Below are positions 1 to 13,774 of a DNA stretch of 35,035 nucleotides, in pieces (position 1 is the stretch's first letter; each line of letters starts with the position of its first letter). The notes beneath the pieces were generated by a model. The model saw only the letters and a list, made by a program, of their open reading frames with translations, was not told the DNA's origin and did not search any database. Location of the stretch: positions 1-35,035 of the forward strand of contig CANQWG010000011.1 of assembly GCA_947627505.1 (NCBI GenBank). Direction: 5' to 3'. The position numbers and the translations under genes are program-made. The DNA is from an uncultured Bacilli bacterium. Lineage in GTDB: Bacteria; Bacillota_I; Bacilli_A; RFN20; CAG-449.

Positions 1-119
1 GAAAATGCATAAAATTGCCTTTATTTAGCCACTTTTACTCGTTTATTTTTGATTTAACTGTCAAAGATGAGATTATATACTATCAAAGGTAAAAGTAAAC
101 ATAAAAGTGAGGTAATTTT

Positions 120-485
120 ATGAAATTTTTAAAAAATTCAATTTATATAACATTATTAGCCTTAGTTTTTTTAATTATTGGCTATTTTGTTTATTCTTAT
201 ACTCAAATTAATGGAAGTGTAAGCCAAGATGTTTTCAAGCAACAATTTTTTAGAACTAAAGATGAAAAAGGTTTTGTAAGCTTTGGATCATTTAAAAATA
301 CGGTAATTTGCTATGATGATGTTTATTATTTCATCAAAGATCTTACTTATGATAATGGCATTTTTACATTACAAAATAGAGATAATGAAGAAGTTTATAA
401 AATAGTTGCTATTGATGAAAATACTATTTATTTAAGTGATTTTAATACTTATTTTTACAATATTACTTTATTTAACGAGGATTAG
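120..485 (+). CDS. Membrane-anchored small protein of the phage-like element
   Basis: I do not recognise this 121-aa protein. It starts with a short basic segment and one hydrophobic span (about residues 8-27), followed by about 90 residues rich in Asp, Tyr, Phe and Asn, so it is probably a single-pass protein with its soluble part outside. A GAGG ribosome binding site lies at 109-112, just upstream of the ATG. The stop codon is followed 4 nt later by the methyltransferase start, so the two are probably co-transcribed. In a filamentous phage a protein of this kind could be a minor coat or attachment protein, but nothing in the sequence proves that. Confidence 0.65.
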   Translation: MKFLKNSIYITLLALVFLIIGYFVYSYTQINGSVSQDVFKQQFFRTKDEKGFVSFGSFKNTVICYDDVYYFIKDLTYDNGIFTLQNRDNEEVYKIVAIDENTIYLSDFNTYFYNITLFNED

Positions 486-489
486 AAAA

Positions 490-1227
490 ATGAGTGAAGA
501 TTTTGAATTAAATAATATATATAATCTAGATTCTTATTCTGCAGTCAAAAAAATAAATGATAAATCCGTTGATTGTATCTATATCGATATTCCTTATTTG
601 TTTTATAAAGGTGGTAAATCATCAACTTTAATTGGTCAGCGATTATGTGATGTTTATAAAGATATAAAAGATTTTTCAAATGGTATTGATTATTCAATTT
701 TTGATGATTTTAAAAGAATTATGAAAAAAATAAATATTTTTATATGGTGTAGTACGCGACAAATGAAAGAAGTAATTAATTATTGGTTATCAATTAAAAA
801 TGTAAAAATGGAATTGTTTGTATGGTGTAAAACTAATCCGGTTCCAAAAAATAATTGTTTATTAACTAATGTCGAATATTGTTTATGGTTTCGTGATGTA
901 AACGTAAAAGTAAATGGCGATTATCACAATAAGTCAAAATACTATGTTTCGGTTATTAATCGAATTGATAAGAAATTGTATAAGCATGCAACAATTAAAC
1001 CTTTAGATTTTGTTAAAAATCATATTTTATGTGCAACTAGTGAAAATGATTTAGTTGTTGATTTTTTTAGCGGTTCTGGAACGACAGCTGTCGCTTGTAA
1101 AGAATTAAAACGTAATTTTATTTGTTTTGAAATAAAAAAAGAAAATTATATTAATTCCTTAAAACGTTTAAATAATGACTTTATTAATGATGAATTAAGG
1201 AAATTTGAACAGATTAAATTATTTTAG
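490..1227 (+). CDS. DNA methyltransferase, N6-adenine/N4-cytosine type (beta-class motif order)
   Basis: This 245-aa protein carries the catalytic motif IV as DIPY at residues 33-36 (a variant of DPPY) and the SAM-binding motif I as DFFSGSGTT at about 191-199. Having motif IV before motif I is the beta-class order of amino-methyltransferases, and the central region (about 60-170) would be the target-recognition part. The ATG at 490 is chosen over an in-frame ATG at 436 because a CGAGG site sits 9 nt upstream and the longer form would overlap most of the preceding gene's end. No restriction endonuclease is seen nearby, so it is an orphan enzyme. It probably protects the element's DNA from host restriction or tunes its replication; the recognition sequence cannot be read from the protein. 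Confidence 0.85.
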   Translation: MSEDFELNNIYNLDSYSAVKKINDKSVDCIYIDIPYLFYKGGKSSTLIGQRLCDVYKDIKDFSNGIDYSIFDDFKRIMKKINIFIWCSTRQMKEVINYWLSIKNVKMELFVWCKTNPVPKNNCLLTNVEYCLWFRDVNVKVNGDYHNKSKYYVSVINRIDKKLYKHATIKPLDFVKNHILCATSENDLVVDFFSGSGTTAVACKELKRNFICFEIKKENYINSLKRLNNDFINDELRKFEQIKLF

Positions 1228-1239
1228 CGAGGTGGGAAA

Positions 1240-1521
1240 ATGAAATTACACGAGATTAAGATCAAAGATAATTATTATTATGCATTGATTCATGGCTATA
1301 AATCTTTTGAATTAAGGAAAAATGATAGAAATTATCAAGTTGGCGATTTAATTCATTTTGTTGATGTTAACGGAAATGATTTTTTGAATGAATCATTTAA
1401 TTTATTTATTATTACTTATGTTTTAAAAAATGTTTCTGAATATGGATTAAATGAAAATTATTGTATTTTATCAATTCAAAAATATAGCAGTGAATTACTA
1501 AAAGGATTGAAATTGTTATGA
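1240..1521 (+). CDS. DUF3850 / ASCH-like domain protein
   Basis: This 93-aa protein matches the pattern of the DUF3850 family (PF12961, ASCH-like fold): it begins with MKLHEIKI, has a central FELRKNDRNYQVGDLIHF stretch at about residues 29-46, and ends with a GLNENYCILSI strand. Such proteins are common in phages and mobile elements and belong to a superfamily with RNA-related folds, but their role is not established. A GAGGTGGG ribosome binding site precedes the start. Its TGA stop overlaps the ATG of the next gene (ATGA), which implies translational coupling to the Zot-like protein. Confidence 0.8.
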   Translation: MKLHEIKIKDNYYYALIHGYKSFELRKNDRNYQVGDLIHFVDVNGNDFLNESFNLFIITYVLKNVSEYGLNENYCILSIQKYSSELLKGLKLL

Positions 1522-3662
1522 TAAGATTTTTAAAGAAAATTGATTATCGTTATATTGTTTCTGGAGTCATTTTAATATGGATCATATCGTTAAGTTTTAT
1601 ATTTAAGGATTCATTTGTTCGTGTTTGGGAATCATTAAAAGATTTTGGATTATCAATAGCTTATTATTTTTGTGAGCTTTTTTATCTACCTTATAATATT
1701 AAACCTACCATTAATGATTTAAGTGTTTCTTCGTTAAAAATAATTAGTGATTTTAACATTTTTGATTTTTCTAATTTTCAAACTTTTTTCGATGTTGGAT
1801 TTAATATGATATTTAATATAGATACATTATTAAGATATTTGAATAAAGTTGCGGATTTTCTATCATCAACAACAAGATTTTTATTAATTTTTGCTCCGTT
1901 AGTGCTGTTAATTATTTTAAAATATCGAACTTATTTTAGCGAAAATGATAATAAGCTTAATAGTGATTCAAAGTTTCTAAAAATATTTAAACAGATTGAG
2001 TTAAAATTTTATAATCCGATTAAAAATTGGTTGATTGATTTGTTTCATTTTTTCTTTAGTAAAAAATTTTTTGTAATAATTACATTGTTGATGTTTAGTA
2101 TTTATTTTAATGTGATTACTATAATTGTTGAATTTTTCGCTTATTATTTTTATTTGGTCATTTCTTTTGATTTTTTATCCCTTTTCAAACAATTATATAA
2201 ATTTGTAATTGATCTTTATCCTCTTTTTAGATTTGTGCCACTTCCAATATGGTTAATTTTAGCTGTTTATTTAATTAGTAATATTAGAAAAAATATTGCT
2301 TATGGTATTTTGAATCACTATGAAATGAAAAATCGTGGTTATATAAATTCAATCGGTCAAGTAAGTATGATATGCGCTCCAATGGGCAAAGGCAAGACAA
2401 CGGTCTTAACGGACATGGCATTAAGTCAAGAAGTAATGTTTCGTGATAAAGCTTTTGAAATGATTTTAGAGAACGATTTAAAATTTCCGTTTTTCCCTTT
2501 TATTGTTTTTGAAAAAGAAATTCAACGAGCGATGTATTATCACGAAATATTTAATTTAGCTAGTGCTAGATTATGGCTTAAAAAAAAGAGAATTCGTTTT
2601 GAAAAGAACAACGATAAAAGTAAATGCTTTGATTATGATTTTAGTAAATATGGATTGTACTACGATGATAATTTAAAAAGAATACATTTATTTGAGATGT
2701 TAGAAAATTACGTTCAGTTGTATTTTATTTATGTTATCGAAAGTAGTTTACTAGTAACAAATTATAGTATCCGTGAAGATAATGTTTTGCAAGATCTAGG
2801 AAATTTTCCAATGTGGCATAGTGATTTCTTTAGATCTAATACGGATTATATGGACGCTTTTTCTCGGCATTCACATATTTTAGATTTCGATATGTTGCGA
2901 CTTGGAAAAAAAGTTATTGATAATAATATTAAATCTAATGCTTTTGAATTTGGTGTTGTAGTTATTACTGAGGGCGGAAAAGAACGTAAGAATACGCTTG
3001 AGCTAAAAGAAACTAAAAAGAACGTTGAACAAACGAATCAAAAGAATGATTTGTTTAATATGTGGCTTAAAATGGCTCGACACTCGGCAACTATCGATAA
3101 TTATCCTTTCATTAAAGTTTTAATTGATGAACAGCGCCCCGAATCAATGGGAGCAGATGTTAGAGAGTTATGTGAGAAGATTATTTTTATTCGCGATAAA
3201 AAAGATACGAAAACTCCGTTAATGTTTTTCTATTTTGAAACGATGATTTATGACTTTTTAAAAAGTAAATTCAGTAATATTTATTATCGATATAGATTTG
3301 TCCGTTCGGATAATACTTTATTTATTTATTTGTTAAAAAAATTAGTAAGTAAGTACATTCATTATTATGAACGTTTAAAAAATACATTTAGTTATCGTAA
3401 GTTAATAATCGAAAGCGAAAAAGGTACTTTAGACAATAATTTTGAAAAAAACGATTATTACATTATGGATAAAAAAATTTATAGTAATAGATTTTCTACC
3501 GCGTGTTTTAGTGAATTTTTTGAGTATAAGAGTTTAGCGAGTTCTTTAGGATTAAATGATTTAGAAGAATACGAATCAGAAAAGGCAACTTTAAATGAAT
3601 TGAATCATCAAAGTTCCTATTTCATTAATGAATTAATGGAATATACGCAAAGAAAGGAATAA
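1518..3662 (+). CDS. Zot/pI-type phage assembly ATPase with long N-terminal membrane domain
   Basis: This 714-aa protein has several hydrophobic spans in its first roughly 265 residues (near 15-32, 112-130, 180-200, 205-225 and 240-255), then a P-loop APMGKGKTT at about 286-294 and a Walker B-like VLIDEQ segment near residue 530. A P-loop ATPase joined to membrane spans, encoded immediately upstream of an HUH Rep, is the pattern of the filamentous-phage morphogenesis protein pI/Zot, which extrudes phage ssDNA through the inner membrane. It is larger than the usual 350-450 aa, and its membrane part is N-terminal rather than C-terminal. A conjugative coupling-type ATPase is the main alternative. 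The name Zot refers to a historical toxin label and does not imply toxicity. Confidence 0.7.
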   Translation: MIRFLKKIDYRYIVSGVILIWIISLSFIFKDSFVRVWESLKDFGLSIAYYFCELFYLPYNIKPTINDLSVSSLKIISDFNIFDFSNFQTFFDVGFNMIFNIDTLLRYLNKVADFLSSTTRFLLIFAPLVLLIILKYRTYFSENDNKLNSDSKFLKIFKQIELKFYNPIKNWLIDLFHFFFSKKFFVIITLLMFSIYFNVITIIVEFFAYYFYLVISFDFLSLFKQLYKFVIDLYPLFRFVPLPIWLILAVYLISNIRKNIAYGILNHYEMKNRGYINSIGQVSMICAPMGKGKTTVLTDMALSQEVMFRDKAFEMILENDLKFPFFPFIVFEKEIQRAMYYHEIFNLASARLWLKKKRIRFEKNNDKSKCFDYDFSKYGLYYDDNLKRIHLFEMLENYVQLYFIYVIESSLLVTNYSIREDNVLQDLGNFPMWHSDFFRSNTDYMDAFSRHSHILDFDMLRLGKKVIDNNIKSNAFEFGVVVITEGGKERKNTLELKETKKNVEQTNQKNDLFNMWLKMARHSATIDNYPFIKVLIDEQRPESMGADVRELCEKIIFIRDKKDTKTPLMFFYFETMIYDFLKSKFSNIYYRYRFVRSDNTLFIYLLKKLVSKYIHYYERLKNTFSYRKLIIESEKGTLDNNFEKNDYYIMDKKIYSNRFSTACFSEFFEYKSLASSLGLNDLEEYESEKATLNELNHQSSYFINELMEYTQRKE

Positions 3663-3667
3663 CTAAA

Positions 3668-4558
3668 ATGGAAAATAATTTATATCGAATTAATAATGAC
3701 GGCTCACATTTTGTTGGTGTTAAATATATCAAAACTCGTAGTGGCGATGAATCGATTTTAAAGAATTATACAAGCGAGTTTTGTTATCAGCACGGCAAGC
3801 CTAGAATTAAGCGGAAGTCTGGCGATGAAGAATCTGATGTTTATAAAATATTAAAGGAATCTTACTTAAATTGTTTGCAGTATGAAAAGCGAGATCGATT
3901 AATAATGATGAAACAATATTTAAAGGATCATGATTATGAATTGTCCGATGATACGATTAATAATTTTTTATCGCGTCAATATAAAAATTTGAAAAATCGT
4001 GTTGAACGTTTTAAAAAGAAAGCGTTAAACAACGAATGGAATTATTTTGTAACGATTACTTATGATGAATCAAAACACGATGAATTTAGCTTTAAAGAAA
4101 AATTAAAAAAATGTTTAGCCAATTTGCATACGCGATGTGGTTATAAATATATGGGTGTCTTTGAACGATCGAAAATTGGTCGCTTGCATTTTCATTGTTT
4201 AATGAATATTCCAAGCGGTTCAATGAAAGGAAAAATTGTTGAGATTAAAGACTATTCAACTAGCGATAAAAAAATGAGAATTACGCATATTAATACGTTT
4301 TTTGAAAAACGTTTTGGTAGGAACGATTTTGTAAGGATTAATTCAAAAGAATTAATGCACGATAATACTATTTCTTATCTGTTAAAATACATTAGTAAAA
4401 GCGATGAACCTATTTTTTATTCCAGAGGAATAGCAACGTTCTTATTTTTGCAACTGACTAATAATGATGTTGTTACTTGCTTTGGCGATCTGTTGATTAG
4501 GTACGTTTTGTTTGATGATATTTTAGAGAATAATAGTTTAATTAAAATGAGGTGTTAA
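3668..4558 (+). CDS. HUH-endonuclease replication initiator (rolling-circle Rep)
   Basis: This 296-aa protein shows the three motifs of rolling-circle initiators. Motif I is FVTITYD at about residues 127-133. Motif II is the metal-binding HFH at 174-176 in a GRLHFHCLM context. Motif III is YLLKY at 237-241, whose Tyr237 or Tyr241 would nick the DNA and form the covalent 5' linkage. It would start rolling-circle replication of the element's circular form at a double-strand origin. A GGAAT-type ribosome binding site at the end of the preceding gene, only 5 nt away, couples it to the Zot-like gene. The hairpin-rich region immediately downstream is the natural candidate for its origin. Confidence 0.85.
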   Translation: MENNLYRINNDGSHFVGVKYIKTRSGDESILKNYTSEFCYQHGKPRIKRKSGDEESDVYKILKESYLNCLQYEKRDRLIMMKQYLKDHDYELSDDTINNFLSRQYKNLKNRVERFKKKALNNEWNYFVTITYDESKHDEFSFKEKLKKCLANLHTRCGYKYMGVFERSKIGRLHFHCLMNIPSGSMKGKIVEIKDYSTSDKKMRITHINTFFEKRFGRNDFVRINSKELMHDNTISYLLKYISKSDEPIFYSRGIATFLFLQLTNNDVVTCFGDLLIRYVLFDDILENNSLIKMRC

Positions 4559-4565
4559 CTAAAAA

Positions 4566-4698
4566 AAATTTTAACTTTTTTTCGGTGAGTGGCAAAAAAA
4601 TACTGCATTCTTTCAATATTAATGTTTTATCGCATATAATAAAAATCCAAATCATACGCTTAAATTGCTAAATTTTAACTTTTTTCGTATGAGTTGGC
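4566..4698 (+). repeat. Imperfect direct repeat pair, about 28 bp, 104 bp apart
   Basis: Copy one (4566-4593) and copy two (4670-4698) share AAATTTTAACTTTTTT followed by CG, TGAG and TGGC, with small indels. Between them lies a perfect TATAAT box (4635-4640). An inverted repeat TCATACG (4652-4658) / CGTATGA (4686-4692) overlaps copy two. Located directly after rep, this fits an origin or regulatory region better than coding DNA. The function is inferred only. Confidence 0.55.
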
Positions 4699-5002
4699 GA
4701 AGTCGAAAAATGCGATAAAAAAGGATTGTCAATGTCTAGGGTTTCCTTGTTATGCCCTACGGGAAATAATAAGGCACGGCATTTACAATTCTTTAATTAA
4801 TATTGTTTTGATGTTGTTTTTTGTCGTTTTTTTATTAACGAGCTTAATTGATTTTATATTAAATGGAAACTTGGCAAAGAAAAAAAGGCAAATTCGCCGT
4901 TTCTTTGCCAAGCATTTAATTAAAGAAAGTAGTCGGTACACACCTATTTATTGGCGGTGCGCTTGCGCGCCGACACTTGTTTATATAAATAGGTGTGTCT
5001 AA
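4694..5002 (+). CDS. Possible small membrane protein (doubtful ORF)
   Basis: This open frame of 102 codons begins with TTG and has no convincing ribosome binding site. In its favour, residues about 31-57 form a believable membrane span followed by a strongly basic segment (KKKRQIRRFF), and small membrane proteins are usual in filamentous phages. Against it, both strong hairpins at 4870-4998 lie inside the frame, and its C-terminal 25 residues are simply the translation of the second hairpin. It may be a real minor coat-type protein with a different start, or a chance frame across an origin region. Confidence 0.3.
   Translation: MAKSKNAIKKDCQCLGFPCYALREIIRHGIYNSLINIVLMLFFVVFLLTSLIDFILNGNLAKKKRQIRRFFAKHLIKESSRYTPIYWRCACAPTLVYINRCV
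4870..4912 (+). repeat. Hairpin 1: 13-bp perfect inverted repeat
   Basis: CTTGGCAAAGAAA (4870-4882) pairs perfectly with TTTCTTTGCCAAG (4900-4912). A short inner GGC/GCC (4887-4889 / 4896-4898) can extend the structure. No T-run follows, so it is not an ordinary terminator. In single-stranded phage DNA it would fold stably, as origin or packaging hairpins do. Confidence 0.75.
4938..4998 (+). repeat. Hairpin 2: 14-bp perfect inverted repeat with GC-rich inner stem
   Basis: ACACACCTATTTAT (4938-4951) pairs with ATAAATAGGTGTGT (4985-4998). The loop holds a GC-rich inner hairpin (about 4956-4971, GGTGC paired to GCGCC with one G-T pair), which stands out in otherwise very AT-rich DNA. It lies just upstream of the transposase ribosome binding site. 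It could be a ssDNA origin or packaging signal of the phage, or a leader structure limiting transposase expression. Confidence 0.75.
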
Positions 5003-5035
5003 TGCTCATTTATAGTTTTTGGAGGTAAAATAGTT

Positions 5036-6019
5036 ATGTTATGTGAAGTTGAAGTTGAAAGAAAAAAGCATTATTTTAATTATCCGTATAGCGCAAAAGA
5101 AAAGTTAAAAGCTTTAAACTTGTTAAAAAGTAGTACTTTTGAATTTGTCGCACATCGCTATCATTGTACAATTCAAACTCTTTATCGTTGGAAACGTCAA
5201 TTTGACGGAACTCTTGCAAGTTTAGAAAACGGATCACACGTTCCGTTAACTCCGAATCCGCGTGAACAAACAATCGAAGAAAAAAAACATATTCAAGATC
5301 TAATAAGGCGCAATCCTAATATAAGTCTTAATGAATTATATGGTAAGTTACGAGTAAATTATGGTTATTCCAGAAATCCCGTAACGCTTTATCGTTATCT
5401 TAGAAAAAATAATTATTTTAAGAATCTTTCAAAAGATAGAAAAAATTATAAACCTAAGAAATATTTTACTCCACTTTCGCTTGGCGAAAAAATGCAACTC
5501 GATGTTAAGGTTGTTCCTTACGATTGTCGAACAAAGGAAGTTCCTTTCGACATGAAGTTTTATCAGTATACTATAATCGATGAATGTACTAGAGAACGAT
5601 TTATTTATCCTTACAAAGAGCAAAACGCAGATTCTACTTGTGATTTTGTGATACGTGCTATTAATTATTTCGGTTATAAACCGAAAGTAATTCAAACTGA
5701 CAACGGACAAGAATTTACTTTTTTAAAGCAATATGGAAAAATACATAAGTTTGATTTACTTTGTGAAAAATTAGGAATTGAGCATAAGCTTATTAAACCT
5801 CGTACTCCTCGCCATAATGGTAAAGTTGAACGTTCTCATAGAAATGATAACGAACGTTTTTATAGATATTTAAAATTTTATAGTTACGAAGATCTAGTTA
5901 GGCAGATGAAAGCATATTTAAAACGATCTAATAACATTCCTACAAGTGTTTTAGGTTGGAAAACTCCGATTGAAAAACGTAAAGAAATAATGTTAAGTGA
6001 TTTTGGGGTTGTTGAGTAA
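5036..6019 (+). CDS. DDE transposase/integrase (rve-type, IS481/IS3-like)
   Basis: This 327-aa protein has an N-terminal helix-turn-helix (about residues 20-52, with the TLYRWKRQF recognition-helix pattern) and an integrase core. The catalytic acids are Asp near 155 (QLDVKVV), Asp near 221 (QTDNGQEF) and Glu near 264 (GKVERSH). The second Asp and Glu are 43 residues apart, somewhat more than the classic 35, owing to a short insertion. A strong GGAGGT site lies at 5021-5026. The frame is intact, so the enzyme could be active. I see no IS-type terminal inverted repeats hugging this gene, so it may act as the recombinase of the whole element rather than belong to a separate insertion sequence. 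Confidence 0.88.
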   Translation: MLCEVEVERKKHYFNYPYSAKEKLKALNLLKSSTFEFVAHRYHCTIQTLYRWKRQFDGTLASLENGSHVPLTPNPREQTIEEKKHIQDLIRRNPNISLNELYGKLRVNYGYSRNPVTLYRYLRKNNYFKNLSKDRKNYKPKKYFTPLSLGEKMQLDVKVVPYDCRTKEVPFDMKFYQYTIIDECTRERFIYPYKEQNADSTCDFVIRAINYFGYKPKVIQTDNGQEFTFLKQYGKIHKFDLLCEKLGIEHKLIKPRTPRHNGKVERSHRNDNERFYRYLKFYSYEDLVRQMKAYLKRSNNIPTSVLGWKTPIEKRKEIMLSDFGVVE

Positions 6020-6037
6020 AATATTTTTTGTTATAAT
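6009..6037 (+). promoter_or_regulatory. Promoter of the coat-like gene
   Basis: TTGTTG (6009-6014) and a perfect TATAAT (6032-6037) are separated by 17 bp. The box overlaps the end of the transposase gene and drives the 58-aa gene alone, which is followed by its own terminator. Confidence 0.7.
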
Positions 6038-6060
6038 TCTCGCAGATTGGGGGAATTATA

Positions 6061-6237
6061 GTGAATTTTAATTTTTTAGAACATGTTGTTGATACTCCAA
6101 AAGACACTACTGGAGTTTATATTAATAATCCACCATACGAAAATTATAATTGGTTATTATTAGTAATATTTGTTTTAGTAGTGCTTATTTTTGGAATTAT
6201 TTATTTTGCAACGCGAAATAAGCAAAAGGAAAAATAA
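6061..6237 (+). CDS. Candidate major coat protein, 58-aa single-span protein
   Basis: The reading frame starts with GTG, 7 nt after a GGGGG ribosome binding site (6049-6053), and ends with TAA. The protein has a hydrophilic N-terminal half of about 30 residues containing acidic residues, a hydrophobic span WLLLVIFVLVVLIFGIIYF (about 31-49), and a basic tail ATRNKQKEK. This layout (acidic or polar head, one span, basic DNA-facing tail, 50-60 aa) is that of mature filamentous-phage major coat proteins. A dedicated strong promoter and a perfect terminator fit a highly expressed structural gene. No cleavable signal peptide is visible. The identity is an inference from architecture and context. 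Confidence 0.6.
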   Translation: MNFNFLEHVVDTPKDTTGVYINNPPYENYNWLLLVIFVLVVLIFGIIYFATRNKQKEK

Positions 6238-6240
6238 ATT

Positions 6241-6265
6241 AAGCATCAAAAGATGCTTTTTTTTT
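6241..6265 (+). terminator. Rho-independent terminator after the coat-like gene
   Basis: AAGCATC (6241-6247) pairs with GATGCTT (6252-6258) across an AAAA loop and is followed by a T-run to 6265. Confidence 0.9.
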
Positions 6266-6280
6266 GAAAAATTTTTCGCG

Positions 6281-6296
6281 AAACCCCTAGGGGTTT
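6281..6296. repeat. 16-bp perfect palindrome near the right edge of the element
   Basis: AAACCCCTAGGGGTTT is a perfect palindrome with a GC core in AT-rich DNA, 15 bp after the terminator. It may mark the element boundary, a recombination site or an operator. I found no second copy in the window. Confidence 0.6.
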
Positions 6297-6388
6297 TATT
6301 GCTATTGATTGTCTATTTCTCTTTTTTTCTTTTTTAATTATTTTTTTTAAAATGTCATTGACAATTCATCACACTTTAAAATAACTCT

Positions 6389-6417
6389 TTAATTATTTCC
6401 TTCATTCATTTTATAAT
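6389..6417 (+). promoter_or_regulatory. Promoter of the YumC-type reductase
   Basis: TATAAT (6412-6417) lies 17 bp after a weak TTAATT box (6389-6394). An AAGGAG ribosome binding site precedes the ATG at 6445. Confidence 0.5.
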
Positions 6418-10544: not shown

Positions 10545-11000
10545 ATGGATAGAATTCAACCACCACCTAATTATTATGGAGCCCCGTATCCTTCAAGTGG
10601 CGATCAAGGTTATCGTCCGCCATTTCAAGAGATGTATCCACCTCAAGGAAGTCAAGCCACTTATCCGCGAGCTGACAATAACGGAAACAATAATTCCGGA
10701 TGGAACAACAACAATGGTATGAATAATAATAGTATGGGTGGTAACTCTGATACTGCCAATAACAATAATGGTTATTCATTCAATACCGATATTTCCCATC
10801 CTTTCTTTGGACGAAACATTAAAGTTTACTGTTCGTTTCCCGATTCTGGAAAATGGCATGATGTCGTCTTTGAAGGAGTAATGGTCGAACAATCAAACGA
10901 CCATATCGTCATTGAAGATCGAAATTCTGGCAAATCTTATCTCATCGTAGCTGTATATGTCAATTACCTTGAACTAGACGGAGTAATGAACAGGCGATAA
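10545..11000 (+). CDS. GerQ-like spore coat protein
   Basis: This 151-aa protein has a low-complexity N-terminal half rich in Pro, Tyr, Gln, Gly and especially Asn (residues 1-88). A compact C-terminal domain (about 89-147) with HDVVFEGVMVEQSNDHIVIE and GKSYLIVAVYVNYLEL matches the end of GerQ (YwdL), a Bacillus spore inner-coat protein that is cross-linked by transglutaminase and needed for cortex-lytic enzyme CwlJ. The gene lies next to ung, as gerQ lies near ung in B. subtilis. A sigma-E-like promoter precedes it. Whether this organism sporulates cannot be told from the window. Confidence 0.72.
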   Translation: MDRIQPPPNYYGAPYPSSGDQGYRPPFQEMYPPQGSQATYPRADNNGNNNSGWNNNNGMNNNSMGGNSDTANNNNGYSFNTDISHPFFGRNIKVYCSFPDSGKWHDVVFEGVMVEQSNDHIVIEDRNSGKSYLIVAVYVNYLELDGVMNRR

Positions 11001-11710: not shown

Positions 11711-13774
11711 CTACTTCTTTTTAGCATCAACCGGTTTAATCGGCTTTTTTAATTCCTTTTTTTGCGGTTTTAAAGGTTTTATTGGCTTAACAACTTCGGG
11801 TTTCGGTCCTTCGTCGGTTTTTTTAGCTAATTCGACAGGTTTAATCGGTTGAATAGGCTTAATTGCTTTCTTTTCTTCGCCTTTCTTTTCAAGAATATGA
11901 TTATTATCTTCATCGTGTCTTACAATTATCGGATTAATCATTTTCTTATGTGCATTTTCAAAAGGTTTCTCTTCTTTATAGTCTTCCGGTTTACTGACTA
12001 CCGGAATTTTTTCAGAAGAAATCTTTTTAACAGGATTAAGACTCATTGGACGAATAACCGATGCCACTCTAGTGGTTCCCGTATTGAAAGCTTCAGTCGG
12101 AGTTAAGTTACCACCTACTTTAGTATTTGAAGAAACATATTTCTTAAGTTCAAGTTGTTTTCGTTTTTCAAGATCAATCGGTTTGATATTCTTTTTGGTT
12201 TGTCCAGTCGGTTTAAAGTCAATCGGTTTTGCAAACTCTTTTTCTTCTTGTTGCGCTTCTTGCTTTTCTCCACGAACAACCGCGATTGGTTTAATATTAG
12301 GACGCGGTTTTTCTTCCACAACTTCTTCAACGACTTCTTCCGGTTCCTCGGCAGGTTCTTCAACGATCGGTTCAACAACTTTAGGTTCTTCTTTAACTTC
12401 AACCTTTTCAACGATCGGTTTGCTTTCTTCTTTAGGTTCTTCAACCGGTGTATAAACAAATTCTTTGATCACTATCGCTTCTGATGGTTCTTTTTCTTCC
12501 ACTTCTTCATAAACTTTTAAGACTTTAGAATCACCAAGTTCGGCAATAGCATTCACATCAACATATTCAGCTTGATATTTTTCAAAGAACGGATCTTCTT
12601 CTAGTTCAACTTCATTCTCAATTTCTTCCTCTTCTGGGACTTCTATAACCGGTTCTTTGTCGAGTACAATGTCGATTTCTTTTTCATCAACAAAAGCAAC
12701 TTCCCGTTCAACAACCGGAGCTTTATTTTCTGTTTCACCAGCATTGCCATTGACACCAAGATCAATGACACCTTCAGAAAGATCATCAATGTAATCAGCA
12801 TGTTTTAACACATCTTGCGTCAATCCTTCGTTTTCAGTGCGATGAATAGCCGCGATGCTTCTAATCGAATCATCTGTAGGTTTATATAATGATTCATTGA
12901 CCTCAGTTCCTTCATAGCCAAGGAAAACAGAACTTTTCTTTGAAATTTGAGAGAAATTGTCAGACAAAGCTTCTTCTTCCGATTTAGCCATCTTTTTAAA
13001 GTATTTTTCTTCCGCTCTTTTTGCTCTTCTTTTCGCAGCACTTTTACGGAAAGGTAATCCTAATAGAGTAAACAATAAGAACCATACAACTAAAACTAAG
13101 ACAACCGCTACAGCAAAGACAACATATTCAACCCACAATAGGTCTTGAGGAATATATTTGTTGGCTAAATCAATCCATCCGTAAGGTTTAGTTACGATAC
13201 CATAGAAACGACCATTTAACCCAATTTTAAAATTATCAGTAAATGGTTTTAAATAATCAGACCAGATAGTAAAAAGACCCTGATTATTAGATTTATATTT
13301 TGCACAAATCGTCGTATCAAATCGCACTAAGAAAAAGAAAGCCAATACTGCTAAAGGAATAAGCATCGAAATTACACGTTTCGTAGGGAAATGACGTAAA
13401 TACATTTTACTATCAAAACGGGCTTTTTCTTCTTCAGTTAATTCGTAAGGATGTTTCATTAATTTTTTACGACGTCTAATTTTTGCTTTTTTAATCGCCA
13501 AACCAATCAAGCCAAAGACAAGGTACCAAACGATTGTCTCAATCACGAAACATATCGCACAAGACACTATGGTAACAAATTTTGGTTGGATACCCAAGTC
13601 AGCTAGATGTAACATCGCTCCGATGTCCTTATAGAATTTACATAATTCTCTTGCGGCATCACAAATAAACGGCATATTTTCCGCAAAGTATGTCGCGGCC
13701 GGTTGATAGATACGAACTACCGCCAAGAACACTTGAACTAATGTAATCAAAACGTAAACTAAAGTTTTTTTCAT
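11711..13774 (-). CDS. Membrane protein with duplicated two-span unit and IKPI-repeat acidic/basic tail
   Basis: I do not recognise this 687-aa protein. It has four membrane spans: about 3-22, 67-94, 133-151 and 213-241. Spans 2 and 4 end in similar blocks (VWYLVFGLIGLAIKKAKIRR at 82-101; VVWFLLFTLLGLPFRKSAAK at 229-248), each after a long loop, so the membrane part looks like a tandem duplication. Residues 255-470 are acidic, with Glu/Val/Pro repeats. From about 475 to the end, basic segments repeat a core such as IKPI, KPID and KPIKP. The tail is probably cytoplasmic and disordered and may bind a partner. It precedes ung with only a 2-nt gap. Confidence 0.75.
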   Translation of the reverse strand: MKKTLVYVLITLVQVFLAVVRIYQPAATYFAENMPFICDAARELCKFYKDIGAMLHLADLGIQPKFVTIVSCAICFVIETIVWYLVFGLIGLAIKKAKIRRRKKLMKHPYELTEEEKARFDSKMYLRHFPTKRVISMLIPLAVLAFFFLVRFDTTICAKYKSNNQGLFTIWSDYLKPFTDNFKIGLNGRFYGIVTKPYGWIDLANKYIPQDLLWVEYVVFAVAVVLVLVVWFLLFTLLGLPFRKSAAKRRAKRAEEKYFKKMAKSEEEALSDNFSQISKKSSVFLGYEGTEVNESLYKPTDDSIRSIAAIHRTENEGLTQDVLKHADYIDDLSEGVIDLGVNGNAGETENKAPVVEREVAFVDEKEIDIVLDKEPVIEVPEEEEIENEVELEEDPFFEKYQAEYVDVNAIAELGDSKVLKVYEEVEEKEPSEAIVIKEFVYTPVEEPKEESKPIVEKVEVKEEPKVVEPIVEEPAEEPEEVVEEVVEEKPRPNIKPIAVVRGEKQEAQQEEKEFAKPIDFKPTGQTKKNIKPIDLEKRKQLELKKYVSSNTKVGGNLTPTEAFNTGTTRVASVIRPMSLNPVKKISSEKIPVVSKPEDYKEEKPFENAHKKMINPIIVRHDEDNNHILEKKGEEKKAIKPIQPIKPVELAKKTDEGPKPEVVKPIKPLKPQKKELKKPIKPVDAKKK

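What the first reader, a model, noticed from the sequence alone, without database searches (positions are those of the whole stretch)
1..6265. Inovirus-like element carrying a DDE transposase, a methyltransferase and DUF3850
Zot-type ATPase and HUH Rep are adjacent on one strand with a DNA methyltransferase, DUF3850 and a DDE transposase. Filamentous phages are known to integrate by host Xer or by tyrosine or DDE recombinases. The combination here in a Bacilli/Erysipelotrichia-like background looks little described and is intact.
Basis: partly seen in the sequence, partly recalled or inferred. Interest (0 to 1): 0.75.

Follow-up and report, generated by a model that had tools for sequence, protein, structure and literature searches.

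The report
Filamentous-phage-like element that inserts by transposition
The first 6.4 kb of this gut-bacterium contig is the right half of a roughly 11-kb filamentous-phage-like element that inserts with its own transposase, leaving a 26-bp target duplication, and it belongs to a family found in well over a hundred bacterial species yet almost absent from virus databases.

Summary
Window base 1 is a contig end inside the element, so this is its right half (73-6371), not an intact copy. A 26-bp direct repeat (6372-6397; other copy on contig C25) flanks it, and a sister species has the empty site. Other elements with the same transposase share its terminal repeats but have unrelated 25-26-bp flanking repeats. 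That is transposition, not site-specific integration. The transposase is IS481-like.

The 'Zot' ATPase belongs to an undescribed family: none of 63 members matches Zot or a coupling protein in Pfam or PHROGs, and fold matches are weak and FtsK-HerA-like. Over 120 relatives were found in Clostridia and Bacilli genomes, but only one each in IMG/VR and GenBank phages. Gene order matches filamentous phages: OB-like small protein, secreted proteins, pIII-like protein, short membrane peptide, ATPase, rolling-circle Rep. One relative is circular (13 kb) and one a tandem dimer. Rep and recombinase types are swapped freely.

Most likely an integrated filamentous-phage-like element working like Spiroplasma vespertilioviruses but with its own Rep. 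Virion production and the coat protein are unproven.

The parts
1..72 (.). end of a multicopy repeat (probably an insertion sequence) at the contig edge, lying inside the element just upstream of ORF1
   Evidence: same 72 bp at the ends of contigs C40, C32, C8, C36 and a degenerate copy inside C6; alignment with L080 puts it in the spacer between the pIII-like gene and ORF1
73..6371 (+). right half of the integrated element
   Evidence: homology to the complete element L080 (67% ATPase identity, about 11.4 kb TIR to TIR); empty site in G001
120..485 (+). ORF1: N-terminal membrane helix plus about 85-aa domain; extended version of the short membrane peptide that precedes the ATPase across the family
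490..1227 (+). DNA methyltransferase (N6/N4), accessory cargo; the ORF is open from a GTG at 436 but the ATG at 490 is the more plausible start
   Evidence: Pfam N6_N4_Mtase E 3.4e-25; absent from most relatives
1240..1521 (+). DUF3850 (ASCH-like) protein, accessory cargo
   Evidence: Pfam DUF3850 E 4e-20
1518..3662 (+). membrane ATPase: several N-terminal membrane helices, then a P-loop ATPase domain (Walker A GKGKTT at about residues 290-295); proposed pI-like extrusion motor
   Evidence: no family hit for 63 members
3668..4558 (+). rolling-circle replication initiator (HUH)
   Evidence: Pfam REP_ORF2-G2P E 3.4e-12, PHROG rolling-circle initiation 4e-7; LHFH and YLLKYISK motifs
4938..4998 (+). 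conserved long hairpin after Rep; proposed replication origin or packaging signal
   Evidence: fold z-score -6.1; same position in relatives with covarying outer stem
5036..6019 (+). IS481-like DDE transposase, the proposed integration enzyme of the element
   Evidence: Pfam rve 5e-17; NCBIfam IS481 180 bits, below the equivalog cut-off of 224; 70% identical copy at the same place in L038
6061..6237 (+). 58-aa protein: acidic N-terminus, one membrane helix, basic C-terminus (GTG start); coat-like architecture, but a relative was found only in L080
6354..6371 (.). right terminal inverted repeat (reads TGATGAATTGTCAATGAC inward); partner left end on contig C25 reads TGTTTTTTTACAATGGAC
6372..6397 (.). 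26-bp target-site duplication (CACTTTAAAATAACTCTTTAATTATT); other copy at C25:78-103, minus strand
   Evidence: single copy with a few mismatches in the empty site of G001

Best explanation
The window holds the right half of an about 11-kb integrated, filamentous-phage-like element of Bacilli. Shown: it has matching terminal inverted repeats with TG...CA ends, was inserted into an AT-rich intergenic site of the host with a 26-bp target duplication, encodes an HUH Rep and a DDE transposase, and has relatives that are circular or in tandem. Inferred: the IS481-like transposase cuts out or copies a circular double-stranded form and reinserts it; the HUH Rep nicks the circle (possibly at the hairpin at 4938-4998) and makes single strands by rolling circle; the OB-like small protein in the missing half coats the strand; the membrane ATPase with its small membrane partner extrudes the DNA through the cell membrane as a thin particle bearing the pIII-like protein and other secreted proteins, without lysis. 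The methyltransferase and DUF3850 are cargo, the methyltransferase perhaps protecting the DNA from restriction.
For: Empty site in sister species G001 with the repeat in single copy; second empty site for the L038 element in G486. In 6 of 7 elements with this transposase and both ends on hand, exact 25-26-bp direct repeats of unrelated sequence sit exactly outside conserved TIRs; two elements with near-identical ends (L106, L155) have unrelated repeats, which excludes a shared attachment site. Conserved order small OB-like protein, secreted proteins, pIII-like protein (signal peptide and C-terminal membrane anchor), short membrane peptide, ATPase, Rep over dozens of loci, circularly the same as f1. 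Circular 13,013-bp contig with 141-bp end overlap; head-to-tail dimer of identical 10,854-bp units. ATPase fold hits are mostly FtsK-HerA packaging ATPases and include Zot, none listed is a coupling protein. Topology (N-terminal helices, then ATPase) matches Spiroplasma phage ATPases and the 30% 'atypical' inoviruses of PMC6813254.
Against: No sequence or profile link to Zot/pI beyond the Walker A motif; fold matches are weak (best E 5e-4 viral, 0.04 PDB). No family-wide major coat protein was identified; the secreted proteins of 160-700 aa are larger than usual in inoviruses. Only one IMG/VR and one phage-database relative, both inside long contigs that are not free phage genomes of this size. 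The window's own left half is missing, so this copy may be dead. The predicted OB-like protein gave only weak matches to single-strand-binding folds.
Confidence: 0.66

Rival explanations
1. A conjugative or mobilisable element: the HUH protein is a relaxase-like Rep, and the membrane ATPase is a coupling or single-protein DNA pump moving DNA between touching cells; the surface proteins are adhesins.
For: N-terminal membrane helices before the ATPase are also the topology of VirD4/TraG and FtsK/TraB pumps (own knowledge); large N-anchored surface proteins with weak Ig-like similarity; no identified coat protein.
Against: No VirD4/TraG/FtsK/TraB hit in Pfam or PHROGs for any of 63 ATPases; no coupling protein among the listed fold matches; no second conserved ATPase or other conserved candidate secretion gene in the mapped loci; gene order mirrors filamentous phages; Rep families are rolling-circle initiators.
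Confidence: 0.18
2. The 26-bp repeats are attachment sites of a tyrosine/serine recombinase or XerCD, and the DDE transposase is a passenger insertion sequence.
For: Filamentous phages often use Xer or integrases; some relatives do use other routes (tRNA-Thr site with a 46-bp repeat in L081; tyrosine integrases). Roux et al. treat such repeats as non-canonical att sites (PMC6813254).
Against: The repeats differ completely between related elements while length (25-26 bp) and TIRs are constant; TIRs lie at the element ends, not around the transposase gene; no dif-like site is conserved in sister genomes.
Confidence: 0.06
3. A decayed, non-mobile remnant whose genes are only vestigially phage-like.
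For: Left half missing and a repeat end inside the element; single copy in the genome.
Against: All ORFs are open and catalytic motifs are present; the two target-duplication copies are still identical; the 67%-identical L080 is complete; the break coincides with a contig end at a multicopy repeat, as expected from short-read assembly.
Confidence: 0.1

Closest known systems
Spiroplasma vespertilioviruses (SpV1-R8A2B, Plectroviridae)
   Same: filamentous-type phage of low-GC hosts related to Bacilli; carries a transposase gene (322-aa ORF3, IS30-type from own knowledge) and moves by transposition with a circular form (PMC8295915); ATPase with N-terminal membrane helices; large 715-aa ORF1
   Different: no Rep in SpV1, ATPase not alignable beyond Walker A, 8.3 kb instead of about 11-15 kb, standard code here, IS481-like transposase with a 25-26-bp duplication
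'Atypical' inoviruses of Roux et al. 2019 (PMC6813254)
   Same: N-terminal membrane domain on the morphogenesis ATPase; exchangeable Rep (including HUH plus SF3 helicase) and exchangeable recombinases
   Different: that survey defined members by pI-type profiles and short structural genes; this ATPase family matches no profile in the libraries at hand and has long structural genes; whether any member was in that survey could not be checked
Ff phages (f1/M13)
   Same: circular gene order Rep, SSB, (coat), pIII, small membrane protein, pI ATPase
   Different: no sequence homology found; f1 does not integrate; no secretin (pIV) and no recognisable major coat here
IS481 / IS1202 / IS481EU transposons
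   Same: transposase related to IS481; target duplications in discrete classes including 24-29 bp (PMC10045372, PMC10132070)
   Different: those are short insertion sequences or transposons; here the unit is an 11-15-kb phage-like genome

Membership tests
Inoviridae / Tubulavirales (filamentous phages) | pI-like morphogenesis ATPase | tested here: inconclusive
   P-loop membrane ATPase in the right gene position; weak fold hits to Zot and FtsK-HerA packaging ATPases; no sequence or profile match
Inoviridae / Tubulavirales (filamentous phages) | short (30-90 aa) single-helix coat proteins | tested here: inconclusive
   a 25-50-aa membrane peptide precedes the ATPase in 53 loci and a 58-aa coat-like ORF exists in the window and L080, but neither is proved to be a coat
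Inoviridae / Tubulavirales (filamentous phages) | circular genome replicated by rolling circle | tested here: met
   HUH Rep in the window; circular relative L104; tandem dimer in G147; replication itself was not observed
Inoviridae / Tubulavirales (filamentous phages) | circular gene order Rep-SSB-coat-pIII-pVI-pI | tested here: inconclusive
   order over dozens of loci matches f1 by position and protein architecture, but the SSB-like protein is only weakly supported and the coat is unidentified
Inoviridae / Tubulavirales (filamentous phages) | filamentous virions released without lysis | not testable with these tools
   needs culture
IS481-superfamily DDE transposon | IS481-type transposase | tested here: met
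   best NCBIfam model IS481 at E 6e-53 (180 bits) but under the equivalog cut-off of 224, so a divergent relative
IS481-superfamily DDE transposon | terminal inverted repeats and constant-length target duplication of non-conserved sequence | tested here: met
   TIRs and 25-26-bp duplications in 6 of 7 elements; empty sites for two
IS1202 family (long-duplication group) | IS1202-type transposase | not tested
   no IS1202 sequence was at hand; the ISNCY model is only a weak match
Conjugative element | VirD4-type coupling protein plus VirB4 and type IV secretion genes | tested here: not met
   no such family among the ATPases and no conserved second ATPase cluster in the mapped loci; the neighbours were clustered, not all scanned one by one against Pfam

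The most novel reading that the evidence does not exclude
The ATPase defines a major, previously unrecognised lineage of single-stranded-DNA extrusion viruses of Clostridia and Bacilli, not demonstrably homologous in its hallmark motor to known inovirus pI proteins, whose members swap among several integration enzymes, two of them DDE transposases giving two fixed target-duplication lengths (about 15 bp with the IS30-type, 25-26 bp with the IS481-like).
Probability: 0.4. Interest if true: 0.82.

Novelty: new variant of a known kind. Interest (0 to 1): 0.62.

Why it matters
If right, a common class of gut bacterial phages has been missed because its motor protein matches no profile in the usual libraries. 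It would extend transposition-based integration from wall-less Spiroplasma hosts to many Clostridia and Bacilli, give a clean natural case of module swapping between integration enzymes, and show that an 11-15-kb phage-like genome can be the cargo of an IS481-like transposase with a 25-26-bp target duplication. At least one named strain appears to carry a member (Pumilibacter intestinalis CLA-AA-M10, L091), so the prediction is testable.

Tried and rejected
Xer/dif integration: the repeat is not conserved in sister genomes as dif would be and no convincing dif-like site flanks the recombinase-less clade. Site-specific att reading: rejected because repeats differ between elements with the same ends. 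Zot by sequence: Pfam, PHROGs, NCBIfam and HHalign against f1, IKe, Pf1, Pf3, SMA9, B5, SVTS2 and R8A2B proteins gave nothing beyond Walker A. Some Pf3 and B5 reading frames taken as pI may be the wrong gene (no Walker A), which weakens that comparison. Coat protein: scans for small membrane proteins found only the short peptide before the ATPase as family-wide. Missing left half in own assembly: not found, but the query was a fast-evolving relative and there was no positive control. OB-fold of the SSB-like protein: only weak fold matches. A single-sequence scan of genome contigs failed. A scan of IMG/VR with the hairpin sequence found nothing. L080 has both TIRs but no matching flanks, unexplained; its contig flanks are only about 70 bp.

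Full report
WHAT IS IN THE WINDOW. The window is contig C11 of a 1.38-Mb, 60-contig genome and starts at the contig's first base. From 120 to 6237 all convincing genes are on the + strand: ORF1 with one membrane helix, an N6/N4 DNA methyltransferase, DUF3850, a 714-aa membrane ATPase, an HUH Rep, a DDE transposase and a 58-aa membrane protein. GC is 23-30% there against roughly 33-36% in most of the host part.

THE LEFT EDGE IS AN ASSEMBLY BREAK. The first 72 bp recur at the ends of four other contigs and, degenerate, inside C6; they look like the end of a multicopy insertion sequence. Comparison with the closest relative (L080, 67% ATPase identity) places this repeat in the spacer between the pIII-like gene and ORF1. 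In L080 about 5.6 kb of element lies to the left of ORF1, with the small OB-like protein, secreted proteins and a pIII-like protein. That part was not found in the window's own assembly (no positive control). So the finding is the right half of an about 11-kb element, and whether this copy is complete is open.

HOW IT GOT THERE. A 27-bp match links window 6372-6398 with C25:77-103; a 26-base core of it occurs nowhere else in the genome with up to 3 mismatches. In the sister species G001 the C25 flank runs directly into the C11 flank, with this sequence once. Taking TG...CA as element ends, the duplication is 26 bp. Elements elsewhere that carry a relative of this transposase show the same picture: L038 26 bp, L097 26, L098 25, L106 25, L155 26, each exactly outside terminal repeats of the form TGttttnATACAAT and TGaanAATTGTCAAt, and each of unrelated sequence. 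A second empty site was found for L038 in G486. L106 and L155 have almost the same ends but different repeats. A constant length, non-conserved sequence and TIRs mean target-site duplication by a DDE transposase. The transposase is IS481-like (168-199 bits; cut-off 224). Target duplications of 24-29 bp are described for the related IS1202 group and about 25 bp for IS481EU (PMC10045372, PMC10132070), so the length fits the enzyme type; I found no report of it for a phage-like element (a limited library).

THE FAMILY. An alignment-based scan of GTDB species genomes gave 123 relatives of the ATPase, of which 79 loci were kept, mostly Clostridia (names such as Gallimonas, Borkfalkia, Pumilibacter) and Bacilli. 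In the window's phylum 12 of 392 sampled genomes have it, and 15 of 147 close relatives. Two scans of IMG/VR found one contig and the phage collection one record. Clustering of neighbours (some loci are duplicates of each other, so counts are approximate) gives a conserved order: OB-like small protein (32 loci), small basic protein, one or more N-anchored secreted proteins, a 196-aa N-anchored protein (53), a protein of about 620 aa with signal peptide and C-terminal membrane anchor (77), a 25-50-aa membrane peptide (53), the ATPase (94), Rep. Read around a circle this is the f1 order. One contig of 13,154 bp has 141 identical bases at both ends and is therefore circular or tandem; one genome has two identical 10,854-bp copies head to tail with a 2-bp spacer.

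MODULES. Rep is of three kinds: REP_ORF2-G2P, origin-binding domain with an SF3-like helicase, and Rep_trans. Recombinases are IS30-type DDE, IS481-like DDE and tyrosine integrases; large serine recombinases lie farther left in some loci. On the ATPase tree recombinase type changes at least 7 times and Rep type at least 9 times; L125 and L142 have nearly identical ATPases but different transposases. IS30-type elements carry flanking repeats of about 14-17 bp at the same relative position.

THE ATPASE. None of 63 members matches a Zot, VirD4, FtsK or HerA model in Pfam or PHROGs. The AlphaFold2 model (mean pLDDT 78.5) has several N-terminal helices and a P-loop domain with a poorly modelled stretch at about 410-530. 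Fold matches are weak but often of the FtsK-HerA packaging type, including Neisseria Zot (2r2a) and inovirus Zot models, and no coupling protein among those listed. The conserved motifs (Walker A; a hydrophobic strand ending in TE; RHSATVDN; DEQRPESxGADxR) follow the Zot motif order by eye, which is an inference.

HAIRPIN. After Rep (4938-4998) lies a 61-nt hairpin with z-score -6.1. The same position in relatives has a hairpin with a conserved GGCG...CACTTGT core and an outer 14-bp stem that pairs completely in 9 of 9 sequences although every stem position shows changes on both sides; none of 2000 partner shuffles reached that. The nine were chosen because they had a stem, so the shuffle overstates the case, but the diversity of the stems is real. 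I propose the double-strand origin or a packaging signal.

HOW IT PROBABLY WORKS. Shown: TIRs, target duplication, empty sites, circular and tandem relatives, Rep and transposase genes. Inferred: circle formation by the transposase, rolling-circle single strands by Rep, extrusion by the ATPase. The nearest working model is the Spiroplasma vespertiliovirus, which has a transposase and packages a circular transposition intermediate (PMC8295915); here a Rep is present as well. Membership in Tubulavirales is left open because the hallmark ATPase and coat protein tests were inconclusive.

VERDICT. A phage-like integrated element of a known general kind, new in detail, and apparently widespread and overlooked.

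Noticed in passing
L173+L174 (G147:C1:169962-191669), L083, L085, L086, L091, L102, L105, L120, L133, L149: Elements of the same family with an IS30-type transposase carry flanking direct repeats of about 14-17 bp of unrelated sequence at their TIR ends; IS30 elements are generally credited with only 2-4 bp (own knowledge). The tandem dimer has a 2-bp spacer between copies.
   Followed up: partly
L081:2099-2144 and 13148-13193: A relative in the same genus as the window (G002) is integrated at a tRNA-Thr gene with a 46-bp direct repeat and has no DDE transposase.
   Followed up: partly
window 1-72; C40, C32, C8, C36 ends; C6:34566-34640: Multicopy repeat end that breaks several contigs of this genome; insertion-sequence type not identified.
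   Followed up: no
L009, L079, L113-L157 (36-row clade): A large clade of the family in Christensenellaceae-like hosts has no DDE or tyrosine recombinase next to Rep; large serine recombinases lie at the left in several, and no convincing dif-like site was found.
   Followed up: partly
L091 (NZ_CALPCH010000018.1): The named strain Pumilibacter intestinalis CLA-AA-M10 carries an element of the family, offering an experimental host.
   Followed up: no
L080:72-11488: Closest relative has both TIRs but its two short flanks share no duplication.
   Followed up: no
window 10545-11000: 151-aa low-complexity protein with a C-terminal region that resembles spore-coat protein GerQ (from memory, not tested).
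   Followed up: no
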